Source of the DNA: Actinomycetota bacterium
GTDB taxonomy: Bacteria; Actinomycetota; Thermoleophilia; Solirubrobacterales; Solirubrobacteraceae
Assembly: GCA_005885515.1 (NCBI GenBank)
Contig: VAWK01000027.1
Location: 86,437 to 128,193 of the forward strand
Direction of reading: 5' to 3'
Length of the DNA: 41,757 nucleotides
Shown: piece by piece, positions 30,600-35,849 of the stretch
Numbering within the stretch: the stretch's first letter is position 1
Layout of the letters: every line of letters starts with the position of its first letter
Made by a program: the position numbers and the translations under genes
Notes under the pieces: model-generated
The model's database searches: none
What the model saw: the letters and a program-made list of their open reading frames with translations, nothing else
What the model was told of the DNA's origin: nothing

Positions 30600-30965
30600 A
30601 TGCGACTGTTCGCCCTGCGGGGCGCAATCAGCGTCGACCGCAACGACGCGCGGGCGATCCACGAGGCGACGGCCACGCTGATGCGGGAGATCATGCAGCG
30701 CAACGGGCTGCGCCCCGAGGACCTGGTCAGCTGCATCTTCACCGCCACCGATGACCTCGACGCCGAGTTCCCGGCGGCGGCCGCGCGGGCGCTGGGCTTC
30801 GAGGAGGTGCCGCTCCTGTGCGCCCGCGAGATGGCCGTGCCGGACGCGGTGCCGCGGGTGATCAGGGTGCTGATCCACTACCACGCCGAGGAGGGGCATC
30901 GGGCCAGGCACGTGTACCTGCGCGAGGCCAGCGCGCTGCGCAGCGACCTGCAGGCGGCACAATAG
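30600..30965 (+). CDS. aroH: Chorismate mutase, AroH type
   Basis: AroH converts chorismate to prephenate, the branch to Phe and Tyr. The 121-residue protein is the trimeric Bacillus-type fold. The active-site residues known from B. subtilis AroH are present in place: R7 (FALRGAISVDRND), C74 and E77 (LLCAREM), R89 (VIRV) and Y106 (ARHVYLREA). ATG 30600 starts 14 bases after rluB and has no Shine-Dalgarno; CACAAT lies 8 bases upstream. Next to aroF, tyrA and aroA it clearly serves aromatic synthesis. No regulatory ACT domain is attached. Confidence 0.94.
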   Translation: MRLFALRGAISVDRNDARAIHEATATLMREIMQRNGLRPEDLVSCIFTATDDLDAEFPAAAARALGFEEVPLLCAREMAVPDAVPRVIRVLIHYHAEEGHRARHVYLREASALRSDLQAAQ

Positions 30966-30969
30966 GCCG

Positions 30970-32049
30970 GTGGCCCTCGAGTTCTCAGAGCGGATCCGGC
31001 GCATACCGTCCTACCCCGTAGCCGGGGGGTATGCCGAGGACGGCCCGCCCGTGCGACTGGCCAGCAACGAGTCGCCGTATCCGCCGCTGCCGGCGGTGAA
31101 GGACGCGATCGAGCGCGCCATGTCCACGCTCAACCGCTACCCCGACCCGTCCAACTCGCTGCTCAGAGCGAGGCTGAGCGAGCGCTACGGGGTTCCCGCG
31201 TCGCGGATCGCGATCGGCAACGGCTCGTGCGACATCCTGCTCGCGGCCGGCGAGGCGCTGCTGGAGCCAGGCGCGGAGCTGGTGTACGCCTGGCCGTCGT
31301 TCTCGGTCTACCCGCACCTCGCCGCCGCCTCGGGAGCGCGGGCGCTGACGGTCGCGCTCGACGCAGATGAGCGCCATGACCTGGACGCGATGCTCGCCGA
31401 GGTCACCGTCGCCACCAGGCTGGTGCTGGTGTGCAACCCCAACAATCCCACCAGCACCGCGATCCCGCTGTCGAGCATCGCCGCCTTCCTGGCGGAGGTG
31501 CCGGCGCACGTGTGCGTGATCGTCGATGAGGCCTACTGCGAGTTCAACCTGCTCGAGGACCCCGATGCGTCGATCGACCTGCTCGCCGCGCACCCCAACC
31601 TGGTGCTGCTGCGCACGTTCTCCAAGGTGCACGCGTTGTGCGGGCTGCGGGTGGGCTTCGCGCTGTGCGGCTCGGAGGACCTGCCACGGGCGGTCGACCA
31701 GGTGCGACAGCCGTTCTTCTGCAACGCGCTCGCCCAGGCGGCCGCGGTGGAGGCGCTGGCGCACCAGGACTCGGTCACAGATCGCGTGACGCGCACGATC
31801 GCCGAGCGCATCTCGATGGACGAGCGACTGCGCGCGCTGGGCCTCGAGCCCGCCGAGTCGCAGGCGAACTTCTGCTGGTTTCACCTCGGCGAGGAGCGCG
31901 AGGAGGATGAGGTCATGCGCGGACTCGCCGAGCGCGGCGTGCTGGTGCGCGGCGGCACCGCGCTGGGCGACCCGGGGGCGGTGCGCGTGACGTACGGGTC
32001 CTCCGAGGAGAACCTCCGCTTCCTCGAGGCGCTTGCCGAGGTGCTGTGA
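30970..32049 (+). CDS. hisC: HisC-type aminotransferase (histidinol-phosphate/aromatic)
   Basis: PLP class I/II aminotransferase of the histidinol-phosphate type, 359 residues. Marks are RLASNESPYPPLP, NRYPDPSNSLLRARLSERYG, GNGSCDILLAAGEALL, VCNPNNPTSTAIP, DEAYCEF and the PLP lysine K219 in RTFSKVHALCGLRVG. GTG 30970 is 4 bases after the aroH stop. Between aroH and aroF/tyrA it most likely aminates phenylpyruvate and hydroxyphenylpyruvate, perhaps as well as imidazole-acetol phosphate, as B. subtilis HisC does; no other his gene is near. The symbol names the family rather than a proven role. CACAAT overlaps the aroH stop 6 bases upstream. Confidence 0.88.
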   Translation: MALEFSERIRRIPSYPVAGGYAEDGPPVRLASNESPYPPLPAVKDAIERAMSTLNRYPDPSNSLLRARLSERYGVPASRIAIGNGSCDILLAAGEALLEPGAELVYAWPSFSVYPHLAAASGARALTVALDADERHDLDAMLAEVTVATRLVLVCNPNNPTSTAIPLSSIAAFLAEVPAHVCVIVDEAYCEFNLLEDPDASIDLLAAHPNLVLLRTFSKVHALCGLRVGFALCGSEDLPRAVDQVRQPFFCNALAQAAAVEALAHQDSVTDRVTRTIAERISMDERLRALGLEPAESQANFCWFHLGEEREEDEVMRGLAERGVLVRGGTALGDPGAVRVTYGSSEENLRFLEALAEVL

Positions 32050-32061
32050 AGCTGCTACAAA
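32033..32061 (+). promoter_or_regulatory. Possible promoter for the aroF leader
   Basis: TTGCCG (32033-32038), a 17-bp spacer and TACAAA (32056-32061) match the consensus at 4 of 6 positions each. Transcription would start near 32068, only a few bases before the leader ATG at 32076. It overlaps the end of hisC. Read-through from hisC is an alternative. Confidence 0.35.
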
Positions 32062-32075
32062 CTCCCGAGACGACC

Positions 32076-32162
32076 ATGCCCTCGCTGGCTAGCGCATCCG
32101 CTGCAGTCAATCGCGCGTACGCCGCGTGGTCGTCCTACGCCTACGCCTGGCGATTTAGCTAG
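32076..32162 (+). CDS. Aromatic-rich leader peptide of aroF
   Basis: This 28-codon frame runs from ATG 32076 to TAG 32160-32162, too short for routine gene calling. The first half is Ser/Ala-rich; the last 14 codons hold Y15, W18, Y21, Y23, W25 and F27, six aromatic residues of three kinds. GAGA at 32067-32070 is a possible ribosome binding site 5 bases upstream. It precedes DAHP synthase, the first step to Trp, Tyr and Phe. Stalling at these codons when aromatic tRNAs are uncharged would change folding of the mRNA that follows. By analogy with trpL and pheL leaders I infer ribosome-mediated attenuation. The peptide itself probably has no other role. Confidence 0.75.
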   Translation: MPSLASASAAVNRAYAAWSSYAYAWRFS

Positions 32163-32204
32163 GCGCTTCGAGGCAGGCCCGGCCGTGAGCGGGCCCGCGC
32201 CTCG
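32161..32204 (+). promoter_or_regulatory. Mutually exclusive leader hairpins after the leader stop
   Basis: CGAGGC (32169-32174) pairs with GCCTCG (32199-32204), with GGCCCG (32176-32181) and CGGGCC (32190-32195) nested inside. Alternatively AGGCGC (32161-32166), next to the leader stop, pairs with GCGCCT (32197-32202). AGGCG can also pair back with either of two CGCCT copies in the Tyr/Trp codons (32138-32142, 32144-32148). A ribosome at the stop would cover AGGCGC and favour the first form; one stalled at the Tyr codons would free it. No U-tract follows, so which form is 'off' is unclear. Confidence 0.5.
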
Positions 32205-32307
32205 CACAGGGTCCTGACCGACGGGACAGAGCGCCTTTCAAGCGGGCTCCACGCCCTCACTCGCGGCTCTGGCGCTGTTGGGCGGCGCGAGCCTCACGGA
32301 AGCCAGA

Positions 32308-32331
32308 GGGCCGCTGCCGAAGCGGTGGCCC
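32308..32331 (+). promoter_or_regulatory. Strong hairpin just before the aroF ribosome binding site
   Basis: GGGCCGCTGC (32308-32317) pairs with GCGGTGGCCC (32322-32331) across 10 positions, two of them G-U, closing the tetraloop CGAA. It lies 23 bases before AAAGGA, the aroF ribosome binding site. Another stem, CTCGCG (32260-32265) with CGCGAG (32286-32291), precedes it. These may be the terminator or pausing part of the leader. The 32163-32366 stretch holds no other gene that I can support. Confidence 0.5.
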
Positions 32332-32366
32332 GGACTAAGATCTCCAGGCGTCGAAAGGATGAGTTG

Positions 32367-33404
32367 ATGATGATCGTGATGAAGGAGACCGCCACCGAAC
32401 AGGAGGTGGAGGCGGTCGTCGAGAAGATCGAGCGAGTGGGTGCGCTCGCGCATCGCAGCCGCGGCGCGCGGGTGACGGTGATCGGCGCGATCGGCGACGT
32501 GGAGCAGGACGTCAGCGTCGAAAGCCTCGGCTTGGAGGGCGCGCCCGGCGTGGACCGGGTGGTGCCGATCCTCAAGCCCTACAAGCTCGCCTCGGCCCAG
32601 ATCACGCACGGCGAGATGACGGTGCTCGAGATCGACGGGCGCAAGGTCGGCGGCGAGAACTTCGCCTTGATCGCGGGCCCGTGCACGGTGGAATCGCGCG
32701 AGACCACGCTGCAGACCGCGCGCATCGTGCGCGATGCGGGCGCGACGCTGTTCCGCGGCGGCGCGTACAAGCCGCGCACCTCGCCGTACGCCTTCCAGGG
32801 CCTGGGCCAGGAGGGCCTGCGCCTGCTGGCCGAGGCGAAGGCCGAGACGGGCCTGCCGATCGTGACCGAGCTGTTGGACATCCGCGATCTCGACGCGGTG
32901 CTGGAGGTCGCCGACGTGATCCAGATCGGCGCGCGCAACATGCAGAACTACCCGCTGCTCGCCGAGATCGGCCGCGCCGGGCGCCCGGCGCTGCTCAAGC
33001 GCGCCCTGTCGGCGCCGCTGGATGAGCTGCTGATGGCGGCGGAGTACATCCTCAAGGAAGGCAATCGTGCGGTGATGCTGTGCGAGCGGGGCATACGCAC
33101 GTTCGAGACCGACCATCGCCGCGTCACGCTCGATCTGATGGCGGTGCCGATACTGAAGGAACTCACGCACCTGCCCGTGATCGTCGACCCGAGCCACGCG
33201 GCGGGCCGGCGCGAGCTCGTGCTGCCGCTGTCGCTGGCGGCCGCCGCGGCGGGCGCCGACGGGATCATCGTCGAGACCCACCCCAATCCCGACGAGGCGA
33301 TCTGCGATGGGCCGCAGGCGCTGCGCGCGGACTCGTTCGCCGAGTACCTCGCGCTCGTCGAGCGCGCCGCCGGGCTGGCGGGAAAGGCGCTCAGCGTCGT
33401 CTGA
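32367..33404 (+). CDS. aroF: DAHP synthase, type I beta
   Basis: This enzyme condenses phosphoenolpyruvate and erythrose-4-phosphate to DAHP, the first shikimate step. The 345-residue protein has an N-terminal ferredoxin-like regulatory domain (about 1-70, MIVMKETATEQEVEAVVEKI) as in the feedback-sensitive Thermotoga type, then the barrel with IAGPCTVESRETT, FRGGAYKPRTSPYAFQG, IGARNMQNYPLL, LLKRALSAPLDE and VIVDPSHAAGRRE. ATG 32367 (or 32370) has AAAGGA at 32354-32359 about 7-10 bases upstream, one of the best ribosome binding sites here. The longer open frame starting at GTG 32325 would begin inside the hairpin and is rejected. Both allosteric and leader control seem likely. Confidence 0.95.
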   Translation: MMIVMKETATEQEVEAVVEKIERVGALAHRSRGARVTVIGAIGDVEQDVSVESLGLEGAPGVDRVVPILKPYKLASAQITHGEMTVLEIDGRKVGGENFALIAGPCTVESRETTLQTARIVRDAGATLFRGGAYKPRTSPYAFQGLGQEGLRLLAEAKAETGLPIVTELLDIRDLDAVLEVADVIQIGARNMQNYPLLAEIGRAGRPALLKRALSAPLDELLMAAEYILKEGNRAVMLCERGIRTFETDHRRVTLDLMAVPILKELTHLPVIVDPSHAAGRRELVLPLSLAAAAAGADGIIVETHPNPDEAICDGPQALRADSFAEYLALVERAAGLAGKALSVV

Positions 33405-33465: not shown

Positions 33466-34542
33466 TTGAAGGTCGCGATCATTGGCGTCGGTCTGATCGG
33501 TGGCTCGATCGGCTTGGCGGCCCGGCGTCGCGCGGGGGCGCAGGTGTGCGGCTATGACCCGGACGAGCACGTGGCCGAGAAGGCGCTCGCGCTGGGCGCG
33601 ATCGACACGCGCGCCCCGGACGTGACGAGCGCGGTGGCGGACGCGGACATAGCGTTCGTCGCTACCCCCGTCGGCGCGCTGCCGGAGACCGTGCGCCTGG
33701 CGCTGCAGGGCGCCGGGCGCGAGTGCGTCGTCAGCGACGTGGGCTCGACCAAGCGCGTGGTTGCGGACGCCGGCGCCGACGAGCGCTTCATCGGCGGCCA
33801 TCCGCTGGCGGGGGCCGAGACCGCGGGCGTGGAGAACGCGCGCGAGGATCTGTTCGACGGTGCCACCTGGTACCTGACCCCGGCGCGAGGCAGTACGGCC
33901 GGGGTGCTGTACGAGCGGCTGCACGGGCTGCTGAGGCGCTTCGGCGCGCAGCCGCAGGCGATCGACGCGGACCTGCACGACCGCTTGCTGGCCTGCGTCT
34001 CGCACCTGCCGCACGTGCTCGCCAACCTGCTCGCGGCGCAGGCCGAGAGCATGATCGGCGAGGGTGAGCACGGCCGGCTGCCGGCGGCCGGCCCCAGCTT
34101 CCGCGACTGGGCCCGCGTGGCCGGAGCCAACAGCACGATCTGGACGGACATCTACATCTCCAACCGCGATGCCCTGACGCTGAGCATCGACGAGTTCTCG
34201 CGGCGGCTGGCAGACGTGCGAACGACGCTCCAGGCCGGCGACCGCGACGCGGTGACCGCGTGGAACGAGGCTGCGCGCGCGAGCCGCGAGACGGTCCTGG
34301 GCGTGGGACTGGTCGGCGGCGCGGTGCACGAGCTGCGCGCATCGGTGCCCAACCGCCCGGGTGTGATCGCCGACATCGCGCTGGCGCTTGGCCGCGCGGG
34401 AGTGAACATCGCCGACATGGCGCTGTCCCCATCCGAGGACAACCGTCAGGGCGTCGTCTCGCTGTGGATCGGCGGCGATGAAGAAGCCGCGCGGGCGCTC
34501 GAGCTGATCGGGCAGCTCGGCTTCCCGGTGTCGCGGGCGTGA
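33466..34542 (+). CDS. tyrA: Prephenate dehydrogenase with ACT domain
   Basis: TyrA oxidatively decarboxylates prephenate to 4-hydroxyphenylpyruvate on the way to tyrosine. The 358-residue protein opens with the NAD-binding loop VAIIGVGLIGGSIGLAARRR, then FVATPVGALPE, SDVGSTK, GGHPLAGAETAGVENAREDLF, LACVSHLPHVLANLL and FRDWARVAGANS. Residues ~283-358 are an ACT domain (LRASVPNRPGVIADIALALG), suggesting feedback by an aromatic amino acid. The start is TTG 33466, because the glycine loop begins at once after it; ATG 33450 is in another frame. The stop overlaps aroA as GTGA. Confidence 0.94.
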   Translation: MKVAIIGVGLIGGSIGLAARRRAGAQVCGYDPDEHVAEKALALGAIDTRAPDVTSAVADADIAFVATPVGALPETVRLALQGAGRECVVSDVGSTKRVVADAGADERFIGGHPLAGAETAGVENAREDLFDGATWYLTPARGSTAGVLYERLHGLLRRFGAQPQAIDADLHDRLLACVSHLPHVLANLLAAQAESMIGEGEHGRLPAAGPSFRDWARVAGANSTIWTDIYISNRDALTLSIDEFSRRLADVRTTLQAGDRDAVTAWNEAARASRETVLGVGLVGGAVHELRASVPNRPGVIADIALALGRAGVNIADMALSPSEDNRQGVVSLWIGGDEEAARALELIGQLGFPVSRA

Positions 34543-35849
34543 GCGGGGCGGGGGCGAGCATGCGCTTCGAGCCCGCCGCTCGGCTGTCGGGGGAGCTGCG
34601 CGCGCCACCGGACAAGTCAATCTCGCACCGCGCGGCGCTGCTCGGGGCGATGGCCTCCGAGCCGGTGCGGATCGAGCACTACCTGCACGCCGCCGACACC
34701 GCCAGCACACTGCAGGCCGTGCGCGACCTCGGGGCGCTCGTTGAGGTGCGCGAGGACGAGGTCGTGGTGCGCGGCACGGGTCTGCGCGAGGCGCGCGAGC
34801 CGCAGGGGCCGATCGACGTGGGCAACGCGGGCACGCTGCTGCGGCTGCTCCCGGGCTGGCTGGCGGCGCAGCACGGCCGCTCCTTCACGCTCGACGGCGA
34901 CGACTCGATCCGGCGACGGCCCGTGGACCGGATCGCCGAGCCGCTGCGCCGGATGGGCGCCGAGGTGCAGGCGCGAGACGGTCGCTTTCCGCCGCTGCAG
35001 GTTCGCGGCGGCCGGCTGCGGGCGATCTCGTGCGAGCTGGCAGTGGCCAGCGCGCAGGTCAAGTCCTGCGTGCTGCTGGCCGCGCTGACCGCCGACGGCG
35101 CGACGACCGTCGGCGAGCCCGCGCGCAGCCGCGATCACACCGAGCGGATGCTCCTGCGCGCGGGCGCGGGCGTGCACCGCCACGGGCGCCACGTGACGGT
35201 CGTCAACGTGGACGAGCTGCTGCTGGGAAGCGTGAGCGTGCCCGGGGACGCGAGCTCGGCGGCGTTCATGGTCGTCGCCGGCGTGCTGGTGCCCGGATCG
35301 CGGCTGCTGATCGCCGACGTCGGCGTGAACTGGACGCGCGCCGGCTTTCTGCGCATCCTGCGGCGCATGCGGGGGATCGTTCTCGGCGACCTCGAGGACG
35401 AGACCGGCGAGCTGGTGCCGGACGAGCCGGTCAGCGACCTGGACGTCGCGCACGGCGCGCTGGAGGGCACGGTCGTGGAGGCAGACGAGGTGCCGCTGAC
35501 TATCGACGAGCTGCCGCTGGTGGCGCTGCTCGGCTGCTTTGCCGAGGGCGAGACCGTGGTGCGCGGCGCCCAGGAGCTGCGTGTCAAGGAGTCAGACCGG
35601 ATCGCCGGCGTGGTCGCTGGCTTGCGCGGCCTGGGGGCGCAGATCGAGGCCACCGATGACGGCTTCGCCGTGCGCGGCACGGGCGGACTGCGCGGCGGCA
35701 CGCTGCAGGCCCACGGCGACCACCGCCTGGCGATGATGGGCGCGGTCGCCGGGCTCGCCTCCGCCGAGGGCGTCGAGGTGATCGGCATGGACAGCGCGGC
35801 CGTGTCCTATCCGGGCTTCGTCGAGGATCTGGCGGCGCTGGTGCACTGA
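34539..35849 (+). CDS. aroA: EPSP synthase (3-phosphoshikimate 1-carboxyvinyltransferase)
   Basis: AroA transfers enolpyruvate from PEP to shikimate-3-phosphate. The 436-residue protein shows RAPPDKSISHRAALLGAMA, DVGNAGTLLRLLPGWLA, ASAQVKSCVLLAAL, RSRDHTERMLLRAG, VNWTRAGFL and LRVKESDRIAGV. The SAQxK, RDHTE and NxTR strings resemble the class II (Gram-positive, glyphosate-tolerant) branch, while the Gly of GNAGT equals E. coli Gly96; Pro101 of E. coli is Leu here. GTG 34539 overlaps the tyrA stop; ATG 34560 is an alternative start 7 codons later. cmk follows after 10 bases. Confidence 0.95.
   Translation: MSGAGASMRFEPAARLSGELRAPPDKSISHRAALLGAMASEPVRIEHYLHAADTASTLQAVRDLGALVEVREDEVVVRGTGLREAREPQGPIDVGNAGTLLRLLPGWLAAQHGRSFTLDGDDSIRRRPVDRIAEPLRRMGAEVQARDGRFPPLQVRGGRLRAISCELAVASAQVKSCVLLAALTADGATTVGEPARSRDHTERMLLRAGAGVHRHGRHVTVVNVDELLLGSVSVPGDASSAAFMVVAGVLVPGSRLLIADVGVNWTRAGFLRILRRMRGIVLGDLEDETGELVPDEPVSDLDVAHGALEGTVVEADEVPLTIDELPLVALLGCFAEGETVVRGAQELRVKESDRIAGVVAGLRGLGAQIEATDDGFAVRGTGGLRGGTLQAHGDHRLAMMGAVAGLASAEGVEVIGMDSAAVSYPGFVEDLAALVH

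What the first reader, a model, noticed from the sequence alone, without database searches (positions are those of the whole stretch)
32050..32366. Aromatic-codon leader peptide upstream of DAHP synthase: candidate attenuator sensing Tyr, Trp and Phe
The 317-base gap between hisC and aroF holds a 28-codon frame (32076-32162) with Y15, W18, Y21, Y23, W25 and F27 packed into its last 14 codons. Right after its stop lie alternative pairings: AGGCGC 32161 with GCGCCT 32197, against CGAGGC 32169 with GCCTCG 32199, and AGGCG can also pair back to the Tyr/Trp codons. A 10-bp hairpin (32308-32331) sits before the aroF ribosome binding site. Known leaders usually sense one amino acid; a mixed three-amino-acid leader would suit the common first step of the pathway. 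I do not know of this leader being described for aroF in this type of organism.
Basis: partly seen in the sequence, partly recalled or inferred. Interest (0 to 1): 0.85.

Follow-up and report, generated by a model that had tools for sequence, protein, structure and literature searches.

The report
Conserved aromatic leader before DAHP synthase
A short decoy gene rich in tyrosine and tryptophan codons, ending in an almost unchangeable stretch of RNA letters and a hairpin, sits in front of the first enzyme for making aromatic amino acids in most members of one order of bacteria, and most likely lets the ribosome report shortage of those amino acids.

Summary
The 28-codon frame (32076-32162) belongs to a leader element found in 83 of 103 genomes of the window's order (Solirubrobacterales, by contig titles), one site per genome, with no credible copy elsewhere in the genomes sampled. 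All 90 distinct exact sites read are followed within 88-254 nt by a DAHP synthase gene, 62 of type Ib and 28 of the different type I-alpha. Tyr/Trp/Phe codons make up 33% of the eight codons before the tail in frame, 1.6% and 5.2% in other frames. The tail is fixed at nucleotide level: CGA-TTT-NNN-TAG in 91 of 91 leaders of a synonym-tolerant scan (43 of 43 without motif-fetched loci). No U-tract follows P1. Best reading: a terminator-less, ribosome-sensed leader that raises DAHP synthase when Tyr or Trp is short; the output step is inferred. Known kind (leader control), new variant; precedents are C. glutamicum aroR and the Acholeplasma uORFC-13-1 motif.

The parts
32033..32061 (+). probable leader promoter: TTGCCG (32033-32038), extended -10 TGCTACAAA (32053-32061), overlapping the 3' end of hisC; leader ATG 14 nt further
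   Evidence: TACAA upstream of 44 of 90 leaders, 37 of these 83-104 nt before the tail TGG, often as TGnTACAAA with a TTGC-like -35 (by eye); a strict sigma-70 scan found 0
32076..32162 (+). leader ORF, 28 codons, MPSLASASAAVNRAYAAWSSYAYAWRFS*
   Evidence: in-frame aromatic codons 238/720 against 10/630 and 33/630 in the other frames over 90 sites
32118..32150 (+). sensor codons Y15, W18, Y21, Y23, W25 (region 1)
32151..32162 (+). fixed tail CGA-TTT-AGC-TAG; CGA, TTT and TAG are fixed at nucleotide level
   Evidence: 91 of 91 by synonym-tolerant scan, 43 of 43 in loci fetched by protein only; CGA is 17 of 287 Arg and TTT 7 of 67 Phe codons in nine window genes
32144..32165 (+). possible anti-P1 hairpin H1: CGCCUGGC with GCUAGGCG, loop GAUUUA
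   Evidence: 78.6% of cells paired against at most 49% when slid, but no covariation; base before TGG is C or T in 90 of 90
32162..32235 (+). stem P1: GGCGCTT 32162-32168 with GAGCGCC 32229-32235, starting at the G of the stop codon; in the window it can enclose two inner hairpins (32169-32204 and about 32211-32227)
   Evidence: 11 pairs, 5 with changes on both sides, 61 such cells (0 of 500 shuffles)
32236..32366 (+). spacer without U-tract after P1; carries the aroF ribosome binding site GAAAGGA (32353-32359)
32367..33404 (+). aroF, type Ib DAHP synthase, the gene presumed to be regulated
   Evidence: NF006421 446 bits, TIGR01361 360 bits, both over cut-off; the name 'type Ib' is recalled

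Best explanation
This is a cis-acting leader that measures Tyr and Trp supply (charged tRNA) for the first enzyme of the aromatic pathway. A promoter just upstream starts a transcript whose leader ORF begins almost at once (inferred). The ribosome runs through 2-6 Tyr/Trp/Phe codons (tail TGG included) and then a fixed tail, CGA-UUU-NNN-UAG. If Tyr or Trp is short it stalls on the sensor codons; its footprint then leaves the region after the stop free, H1 cannot form because region 1 is covered, and stem P1 forms. If supply is good it moves on to UUU and UAG, where its footprint covers the 5' arm of P1. P1 is therefore the shortage (ON) state. Since P1 is not followed by U's, it is most likely a protecting or antiterminating structure against Rho-dependent termination or decay in the untranslated spacer, rather than a terminator. 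Shown: conservation of the translated frame, fixed tail, P1, link to DAHP synthase. Inferred: stalling, direction of response, and the output step.
For: Frame and codon bias: 238 of 720 aromatic codons in frame against 1.6% and 5.2% out of frame. 90 of 90 exact sites precede a DAHP synthase, of two different types, first match 88-254 nt from the site. P1 has compensatory changes (GGCA/TGCC in genus g9). Folding with an assumed ribosome footprint: P1 probability 0.85 with the ribosome on the nearest aromatic codon, 0.86 on TGG, 0.03 on TTT, 0.00 on TAG, 0.67 with none (77 sequences); the sensor codons lie on the permissive side of that boundary. One genome with no DAHP synthase in the stretch held at this locus (G005; hisC, leader, tyrA, aroA recognised by eye) keeps a decayed copy with few aromatic codons, a weak P1 and the only TTT-to-TTC change seen. 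0 of 77 have 5 or more T in the 10 nt after P1.
Against: No experiment. No conserved OFF structure or terminator was found, so the output is guessed. Amino-acid supply alone does not explain why CGA and UUU never change to synonyms. H1 lacks covariation. The 77 sequences for P1 were chosen from 90 by having at least 7 contiguous pairs, and on one of five measures (further pair types) P1 is not beyond shuffles (143 of 500). A TANNNT-like box near aroF in 33 of 55 loci could be a second promoter that bypasses the leader. In the window P1 is only 7 bp and the minimum-energy fold of the window's own core does not contain it. 20 of 103 genomes of the order have no hit.
Confidence: 0.7

Rival explanations
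1. The tail CGAUUUNNNUAG plus P1 is the binding site of a trans-acting factor (RNA-binding protein, RNA or RNase) that reads whether ribosomes cover it; the leader only supplies ribosome occupancy.
For: Nucleotide-level invariance that a peptide would not need (91 of 91); CGAUUU sits in the loop of the possible hairpin H1; in G212 the stop is lost (CAG) while CGATTT, AGGCG and P1 arms are kept.
Against: One site per genome, always in the same codon frame and after aromatic codons, which a pure binding site would not need; no factor identified.
Confidence: 0.25
2. The tail is a programmed ribosome pause: when the ribosome's leading edge meets the base of P1, CGA and UUU are about in the P and A sites; slow codons plus the stem time the ribosome against RNA polymerase.
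For: Spacing of about 8 nt from the start of UUU to the start of P1 (sequence); CGA and UUU are minor codons in window genes (17 of 287 Arg, 7 of 67 Phe); CGA is 0 of 123 CGN codons in the 12 codons before the tail of 90 leaders.
Against: Other minor Arg codons (AGA, AGG) never replace CGA; no profiling data; the ribosome geometry is recalled, not computed.
Confidence: 0.2
3. Classical transcription attenuator with an intrinsic terminator.
For: Leader ORF with regulatory codons and competing pairings, as in trpL (recalled).
Against: No U-tract after P1 (0 of 77 with 5 or more T in 10 nt); terminator scan of the window region 0 hits; the 3' arm of P1 pairs downstream no better than shuffles (mean z 0.14, 69 sequences).
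Confidence: 0.08
4. Nascent-peptide sensing of a free metabolite (TnaC-like arrest by W-R-F-x-stop).
For: Conserved C-terminal W-R-F-x; fixed UAG.
Against: W is replaced by Y, P or L in 4 leaders (L027, L184, L186, L294); peptide selection would not hold synonymous positions; residue x varies among S, I, T, R and M.
Confidence: 0.07
5. Chance frame; the region is a promoter or spacer only.
For: Short GC-rich frames are common.
Against: Conservation.
Confidence: 0.01

Closest known systems
C. glutamicum aroR leader upstream of aroF (Neshat et al. 2014, not seen itself; passages of PMC11802643, PMC4046766 and PMC7356990 seen)
   Same: Aromatic-codon leader before a DAHP synthase gene in an actinobacterium, ribosome-mediated control.
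   Different: Leader has Phe-Tyr-Phe and responds to Phe, not to Tyr (review passage); here Tyr plus Trp dominate, with a fixed nucleotide tail and a P1 stem at the stop codon. No copy with 0 or 1 mismatch to the element pattern was found outside the window's order in 396 phylum genomes.
uORFC-13-1 motif upstream of aroF in Acholeplasma (PMC8632094, section 26 and passages read)
   Same: uORF before DAHP synthase, probable attenuation.
   Different: Codes for at least one Phe and sits at an apparent intrinsic terminator; different phylum; no terminator found here.
LEU element upstream of leuA in Actinobacteria (PMC1262725, parts 1 and 2 of 3 read)
   Same: Run of regulatory codons followed by conserved RNA structure, no terminator, mechanism unsettled.
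   Different: In LEU the Leu codons pair with the Shine-Dalgarno box and a pseudoknot is proposed; here the leader's last codons pair with the aroF start region no better than shuffles (mean z -0.19, 55 loci). Leu-run leaders occur before leuA in the same order.
E. coli trpL / pheL attenuators (recalled; mentioned in PMC11802643 passages)
   Same: Ribosome stalling on regulatory codons frees region 2.
   Different: They end in an intrinsic terminator and sense one amino acid (recalled).
ilvB-II motif, Corynebacterium (PMC10272879, passages)
   Same: Conserved uORF rich in codons for several amino acids, found once per genome.
   Different: Has terminator and antiterminator; branched-chain amino acids.

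Membership tests
Ribosome-mediated transcription attenuator (trpL kind) | Short translated leader ORF with clustered codons for the pathway product | tested here: met
   (translation itself inferred from conservation)
Ribosome-mediated transcription attenuator (trpL kind) | Mutually exclusive RNA stems, one beside the leader codons | tested here: inconclusive
   P1 supported by covariation; competing H1 possible but invariant
Ribosome-mediated transcription attenuator (trpL kind) | Intrinsic terminator with U-tract before the structural gene | tested here: not met
Ribosome-mediated transcription attenuator (trpL kind) | Expression responds to amino-acid supply | not testable with these tools
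   needs experiment
Described RNA families (Rfam 15) | Match to a covariance model | tested here: not met
   0 matches at gathering level in the window; at E up to 5 for 31950-32480 only three low-scoring unrelated names
LEU element | Regulatory codons complementary to the Shine-Dalgarno region of the structural gene | tested here: not met
   mean z -0.19, 13 of 55 below -1
C. glutamicum aroR | Phe-Tyr-Phe leader | tested here: not met
   leaders carry W and Y, F among the sensor codons in 39 of 90
C. glutamicum aroR | Response to Phe limitation | not testable with these tools
   needs experiment
TnaC-like arrest peptide | Peptide-level rather than nucleotide-level conservation of arrest residues | tested here: not met
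   nucleotides fixed while residue x and the W position vary

The most novel reading that the evidence does not exclude
A leader-RNA class not described in the papers I searched, in which the sensor codons are followed by a fixed 'gate' (CGA-UUU-NNN-UAG running into stem P1) that works without any terminator: the gate couples ribosome position to P1, through a programmed pause or a dedicated RNA-binding factor, to control Rho or mRNA decay, and it has stayed with the function (DAHP synthase) while the enzyme itself was exchanged between two types.
Probability: 0.4. Interest if true: 0.78.

Novelty: new variant of a known kind. Interest (0 to 1): 0.6.

Why it matters
It gives an order of little-studied bacteria a first candidate for control of the entry step of aromatic biosynthesis, reading two or three products at once through translation. 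It is a clear natural case of leader control without an intrinsic terminator in GC-rich actinobacteria, an open question also for the leuA LEU element. The fixed CGA-UUU-NNN-UAG tail makes direct, simple mutations decisive. That one leader stands before two DAHP synthase types suggests a regulatory element that outlives the enzyme it controls.

Tried and rejected
Intrinsic terminator: rejected. 3' arm of P1 with a downstream partner: mean z 0.14 over 69 sequences, no signal (that set needed 8 or more P1 pairs, so the window and its nearest kin were not in it). Competing hairpin inside the P1 loop with the 3' arm: mean z -0.14; inner hairpins alone mean z -0.84, not universal (77 sequences). 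Hairpin near 32308-32331: weak tendency in eight close loci, not in 55. Second promoter before aroF: TANNNT in 33 of 55 but no -35, left open. Rfam: nothing. RNA polymerase pause consensus, boxA and tRNA pairing were considered only from memory and not tested. Stop-codon readthrough into aroF: the distance from site to aroF is not a multiple of 3 in many loci. Leader codons pairing with the aroF start region: no. A W-rich leader before trpE: not seen in 29 of 30 loci; the one hit (L242) ends 20 nt before the gene and looks like coding sequence. Plasmid search: no match. First scans read minus-strand loci in the wrong orientation and undercounted; corrected from then on.

Biases and dropped rows: 52 loci (L124-L175) were fetched because they carry TGGCGATTTNNNTAG, so the invariance claim rests, the latter without them; 30 loci (L176-L205) were fetched mainly because their genomes lack the pattern or as outgroups (L192 is an uninformative 100-base piece). 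Eight sites (L116-L123) in other families carried the pattern and were dropped as chance: no DAHP synthase in the loci, and the reversed pattern gave 9 hits in the same 299 genomes. In one search eight hits with 2 mismatches lay in seven genomes outside the order; none of those loci holds a DAHP synthase, and the reversed control gave 23 hits by my count. G071's pattern hit was not fetched. Two weak model hits outside the order (G027, G239) had no DAHP synthase downstream in the stretch held and were set aside. 13 of 90 sites were left out of the P1 alignment; all 13 score E <= 1.2e-4 with the model. In one search, a few 'stems' are in the wrong place (for example L038, L133). Against a perfect rule: G212 lost the stop codon; 20 of 103 order genomes have no hit, 13 of them in genera g4, g12 and g28; in one (G142) the contig begins inside aroF. 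The count of 103 is mine from the listings.

The LEU test, first judged by eye, was computed.

Full report
WHAT IS THERE. Its order is Solirubrobacterales by inference from the titles of the nearest named contigs; G288, of the same genus, holds the contig titled 'Solirubrobacteraceae bacterium' (L009 is identical in core to L036). Gene order is chorismate mutase (30600-30965), hisC (30970-32049), leader, aroF DAHP synthase (32367-33404), a tyrA-like gene (33466-34542; best models prephenate dehydrogenase, under their cut-offs), aroA (34539-35849), cmk, der. The leader frame at 32076-32162 is exactly as described.

CONSERVATION. A class-wide search for TGGCGATTTNNNTAG in 299 genomes gave 86 genomes with one site each; 78 are in the window's order and 8 in other families look like chance (reversed control 9 hits; no DAHP synthase in those 8 loci). 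A covariance model built from 77 cores (R1) found 83 of 103 genomes of the order at E <= 0.01 and two weak hits elsewhere without a DAHP synthase in the stretch behind them. In 396 genomes drawn from the phylum, matches with 0 or 1 mismatch to a longer pattern occurred only in this order; eight hits with 2 mismatches lay outside it, against 23 for the reversed control by my count, and none of those loci holds a DAHP synthase. Ninety distinct exact sites were read; 90 of 90 are followed by a DAHP synthase, 62 type Ib and 28 type I-alpha (the best match decides the type; TIGR00034 for one type I-alpha protein; the type names are recalled), with the first match 88-254 nt after the site, median 169. 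In L009, L040, L149 and L154 both types follow the leader in tandem (43 of 90 loci hold 2200 nt or more downstream), which suggests how one enzyme took the place of the other behind the leader.

THE READING FRAME. In the eight codons before the tail TGG, 238 of 720 codons are Tyr, Trp or Phe, against 10 of 630 and 33 of 630 in the other frames. In the ten codons up to and including TGG, Tyr is present in 89 of 90 and Phe in 39 of 90; Trp is fixed by the search pattern. TACAA lies upstream in 44 of 90, in 37 of them 83-104 nt before the tail and often as TGnTACAAA close to the leader start (by eye), so the leader mRNA is probably nearly leaderless.

THE FIXED TAIL. A scan anchored on DAHP synthase genes that allowed any Arg codon, any Phe codon, any residue and any stop found 91 leaders among 133 distinct upstream regions; all 91 use CGA, TTT and TAG out of 36 combinations. 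Restricted to loci fetched by protein, 43 of 43 among 79 regions. In nine window genes CGA is 17 of 287 Arg codons and TTT 7 of 67 Phe codons. The codon before CGA is TGG in 88 of the 91 and TAT, CCG or CTG in one each; L294 adds another CCG. So selection acts on nucleotides, not only on the peptide. Two natural exceptions: in G212 the stop became CAG while CGATTT, AGGCG and the P1 arms remain; in G005 no DAHP synthase follows in the stretch held, and the element between hisC and tyrA (genes recognised by eye) has few aromatic codons, a weak P1 and the only TTC.

THE STEM P1. From the G of the stop codon, GGCGYYCGGCC pairs with GGYCGRRCGCC; in the 77 sequences used the 3' arm ends 43-84 nt after that G. 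Of 90 sites, 74 have a match of 8 or more contiguous pairs, against 13% of shuffles (a few matches are in the wrong place). On 77 aligned cores 93.3% of cells pair, against at most 46% when slid; 5 of 11 pairs show two-sided changes (8 of 500 shuffles as high) and 61 cells are two-sided (0 of 500); further pair types are not beyond shuffles (143 of 500). The 77 were chosen for pairing, which inflates the percentage; the 13 left out all score E <= 1.2e-4 with R1. The alternative hairpin H1, which pairs the Ala/Tyr-Trp codons with CUAGGCG, is possible in many (78.6% of cells against at most 49% slid) but shows no covariation; the base before TGG is C or T in 90 of 90, as that pairing would want.

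NO TERMINATOR FOUND. After P1, 0 of 77 have 5 or more T in 10 nt and 1 of 77 has a run of 4. In 69 sequences the spacer is not more structured than shuffles (mean z 0.34) and the 3' arm finds no better downstream partner than shuffles (mean z 0.14). Just before aroF, 55 loci give mean z -0.3 for a hairpin, with a weak tendency (mean about -1.2) in eight loci close to the window. Terminator scan of 31950-32450: none.

MODEL. With an assumed footprint of -16 to +12 around the A site, P1 forms with mean probability 0.85 when the ribosome sits on the nearest aromatic codon, 0.86 on TGG, 0.03 on TTT, 0.00 on TAG and 0.67 with none (77 sequences). The sensor codons thus lie where a stall permits P1 and the fixed tail lies where the ribosome forbids it. 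By pathway logic shortage should raise DAHP synthase, so P1 should be the ON state. The output is most likely Rho-dependent termination or mRNA decay in the untranslated spacer; this is inference. Why CGA and UUU are fixed is not explained by supply sensing; a programmed pause or a trans-acting factor are the live ideas.

KNOWN AND NEW. Leader control of DAHP synthase is known: C. glutamicum aroR, Phe-Tyr-Phe, Phe response (passages in PMC11802643, PMC4046766, PMC7356990; the original Neshat 2014 paper not seen), and the Acholeplasma uORFC-13-1 motif with an apparent terminator (PMC8632094 section 26). The 2005 survey of Actinobacteria (PMC1262725, parts 1-2 of 3) lists no genome of this order and reported no conserved structures upstream of phenylalanine or tyrosine operons. 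PMC11109978 (50 genomes) has no mention of Conexibacter, Solirubrobacter, aroF or DAHP in its main text. My searches for the order or class with leader or attenuator terms found nothing relevant, in an open-access library only. Rfam has no matching family. I file it as a new variant of leader-peptide control, not as a member of the classical attenuator family, because the terminator test was not met.

Noticed in passing
L256-L285 (upstream of leuA, 30 loci): 28 of 30 leuA genes of the order have a frame with 5 or more Leu in 10 codons, mostly ending ...LLLLPLRGE*, followed at once by a GC-rich stem; this looks like the LEU element of other Actinobacteria.
   Followed up: partly
L180, L181, L190 upstream of aroF (family f4, genus g28): No aromatic leader; instead a shared hairpin like CACCAAAG...CTTTGGTG with a similar loop, perhaps another regulatory element of aroF (by eye).
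   Followed up: no
L296 about 700-790 (G005): Relic leader between hisC and tyrA with no DAHP synthase following in the stretch held; the only copy seen with TTC.
   Followed up: yes
L295 (G212): Leader stop TAG changed to CAG; the frame runs 8 codons further (CAG included), P1 arms kept.
   Followed up: partly
L009, L040, L149, L154: Type Ib and type I-alpha DAHP synthases in tandem behind one leader.
   Followed up: partly
L026, L032, L176-L179, L188, L189: Relatives in genera g4 and g12 and G071, mostly with small genomes, lack the leader; aroF there follows what looks like the end of hisC or of the chorismate mutase gene closely (by eye).
   Followed up: partly
L038: Contig titled 'Chlamydiae bacterium' carries an aroF 78% identical to the window's and a typical leader of this order: probably a misbinned or mislabelled contig.
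   Followed up: no
window 32336-32341 and about 25-45 nt before aroF in relatives: TANNNT box in 33 of 55 loci without a -35 element; may be a second promoter.
   Followed up: partly
L226-L255 (trpE, 30 loci): No credible Trp-rich leader before trpE in the 30 loci read, so Trp shortage may be read at DAHP synthase instead.
   Followed up: partly
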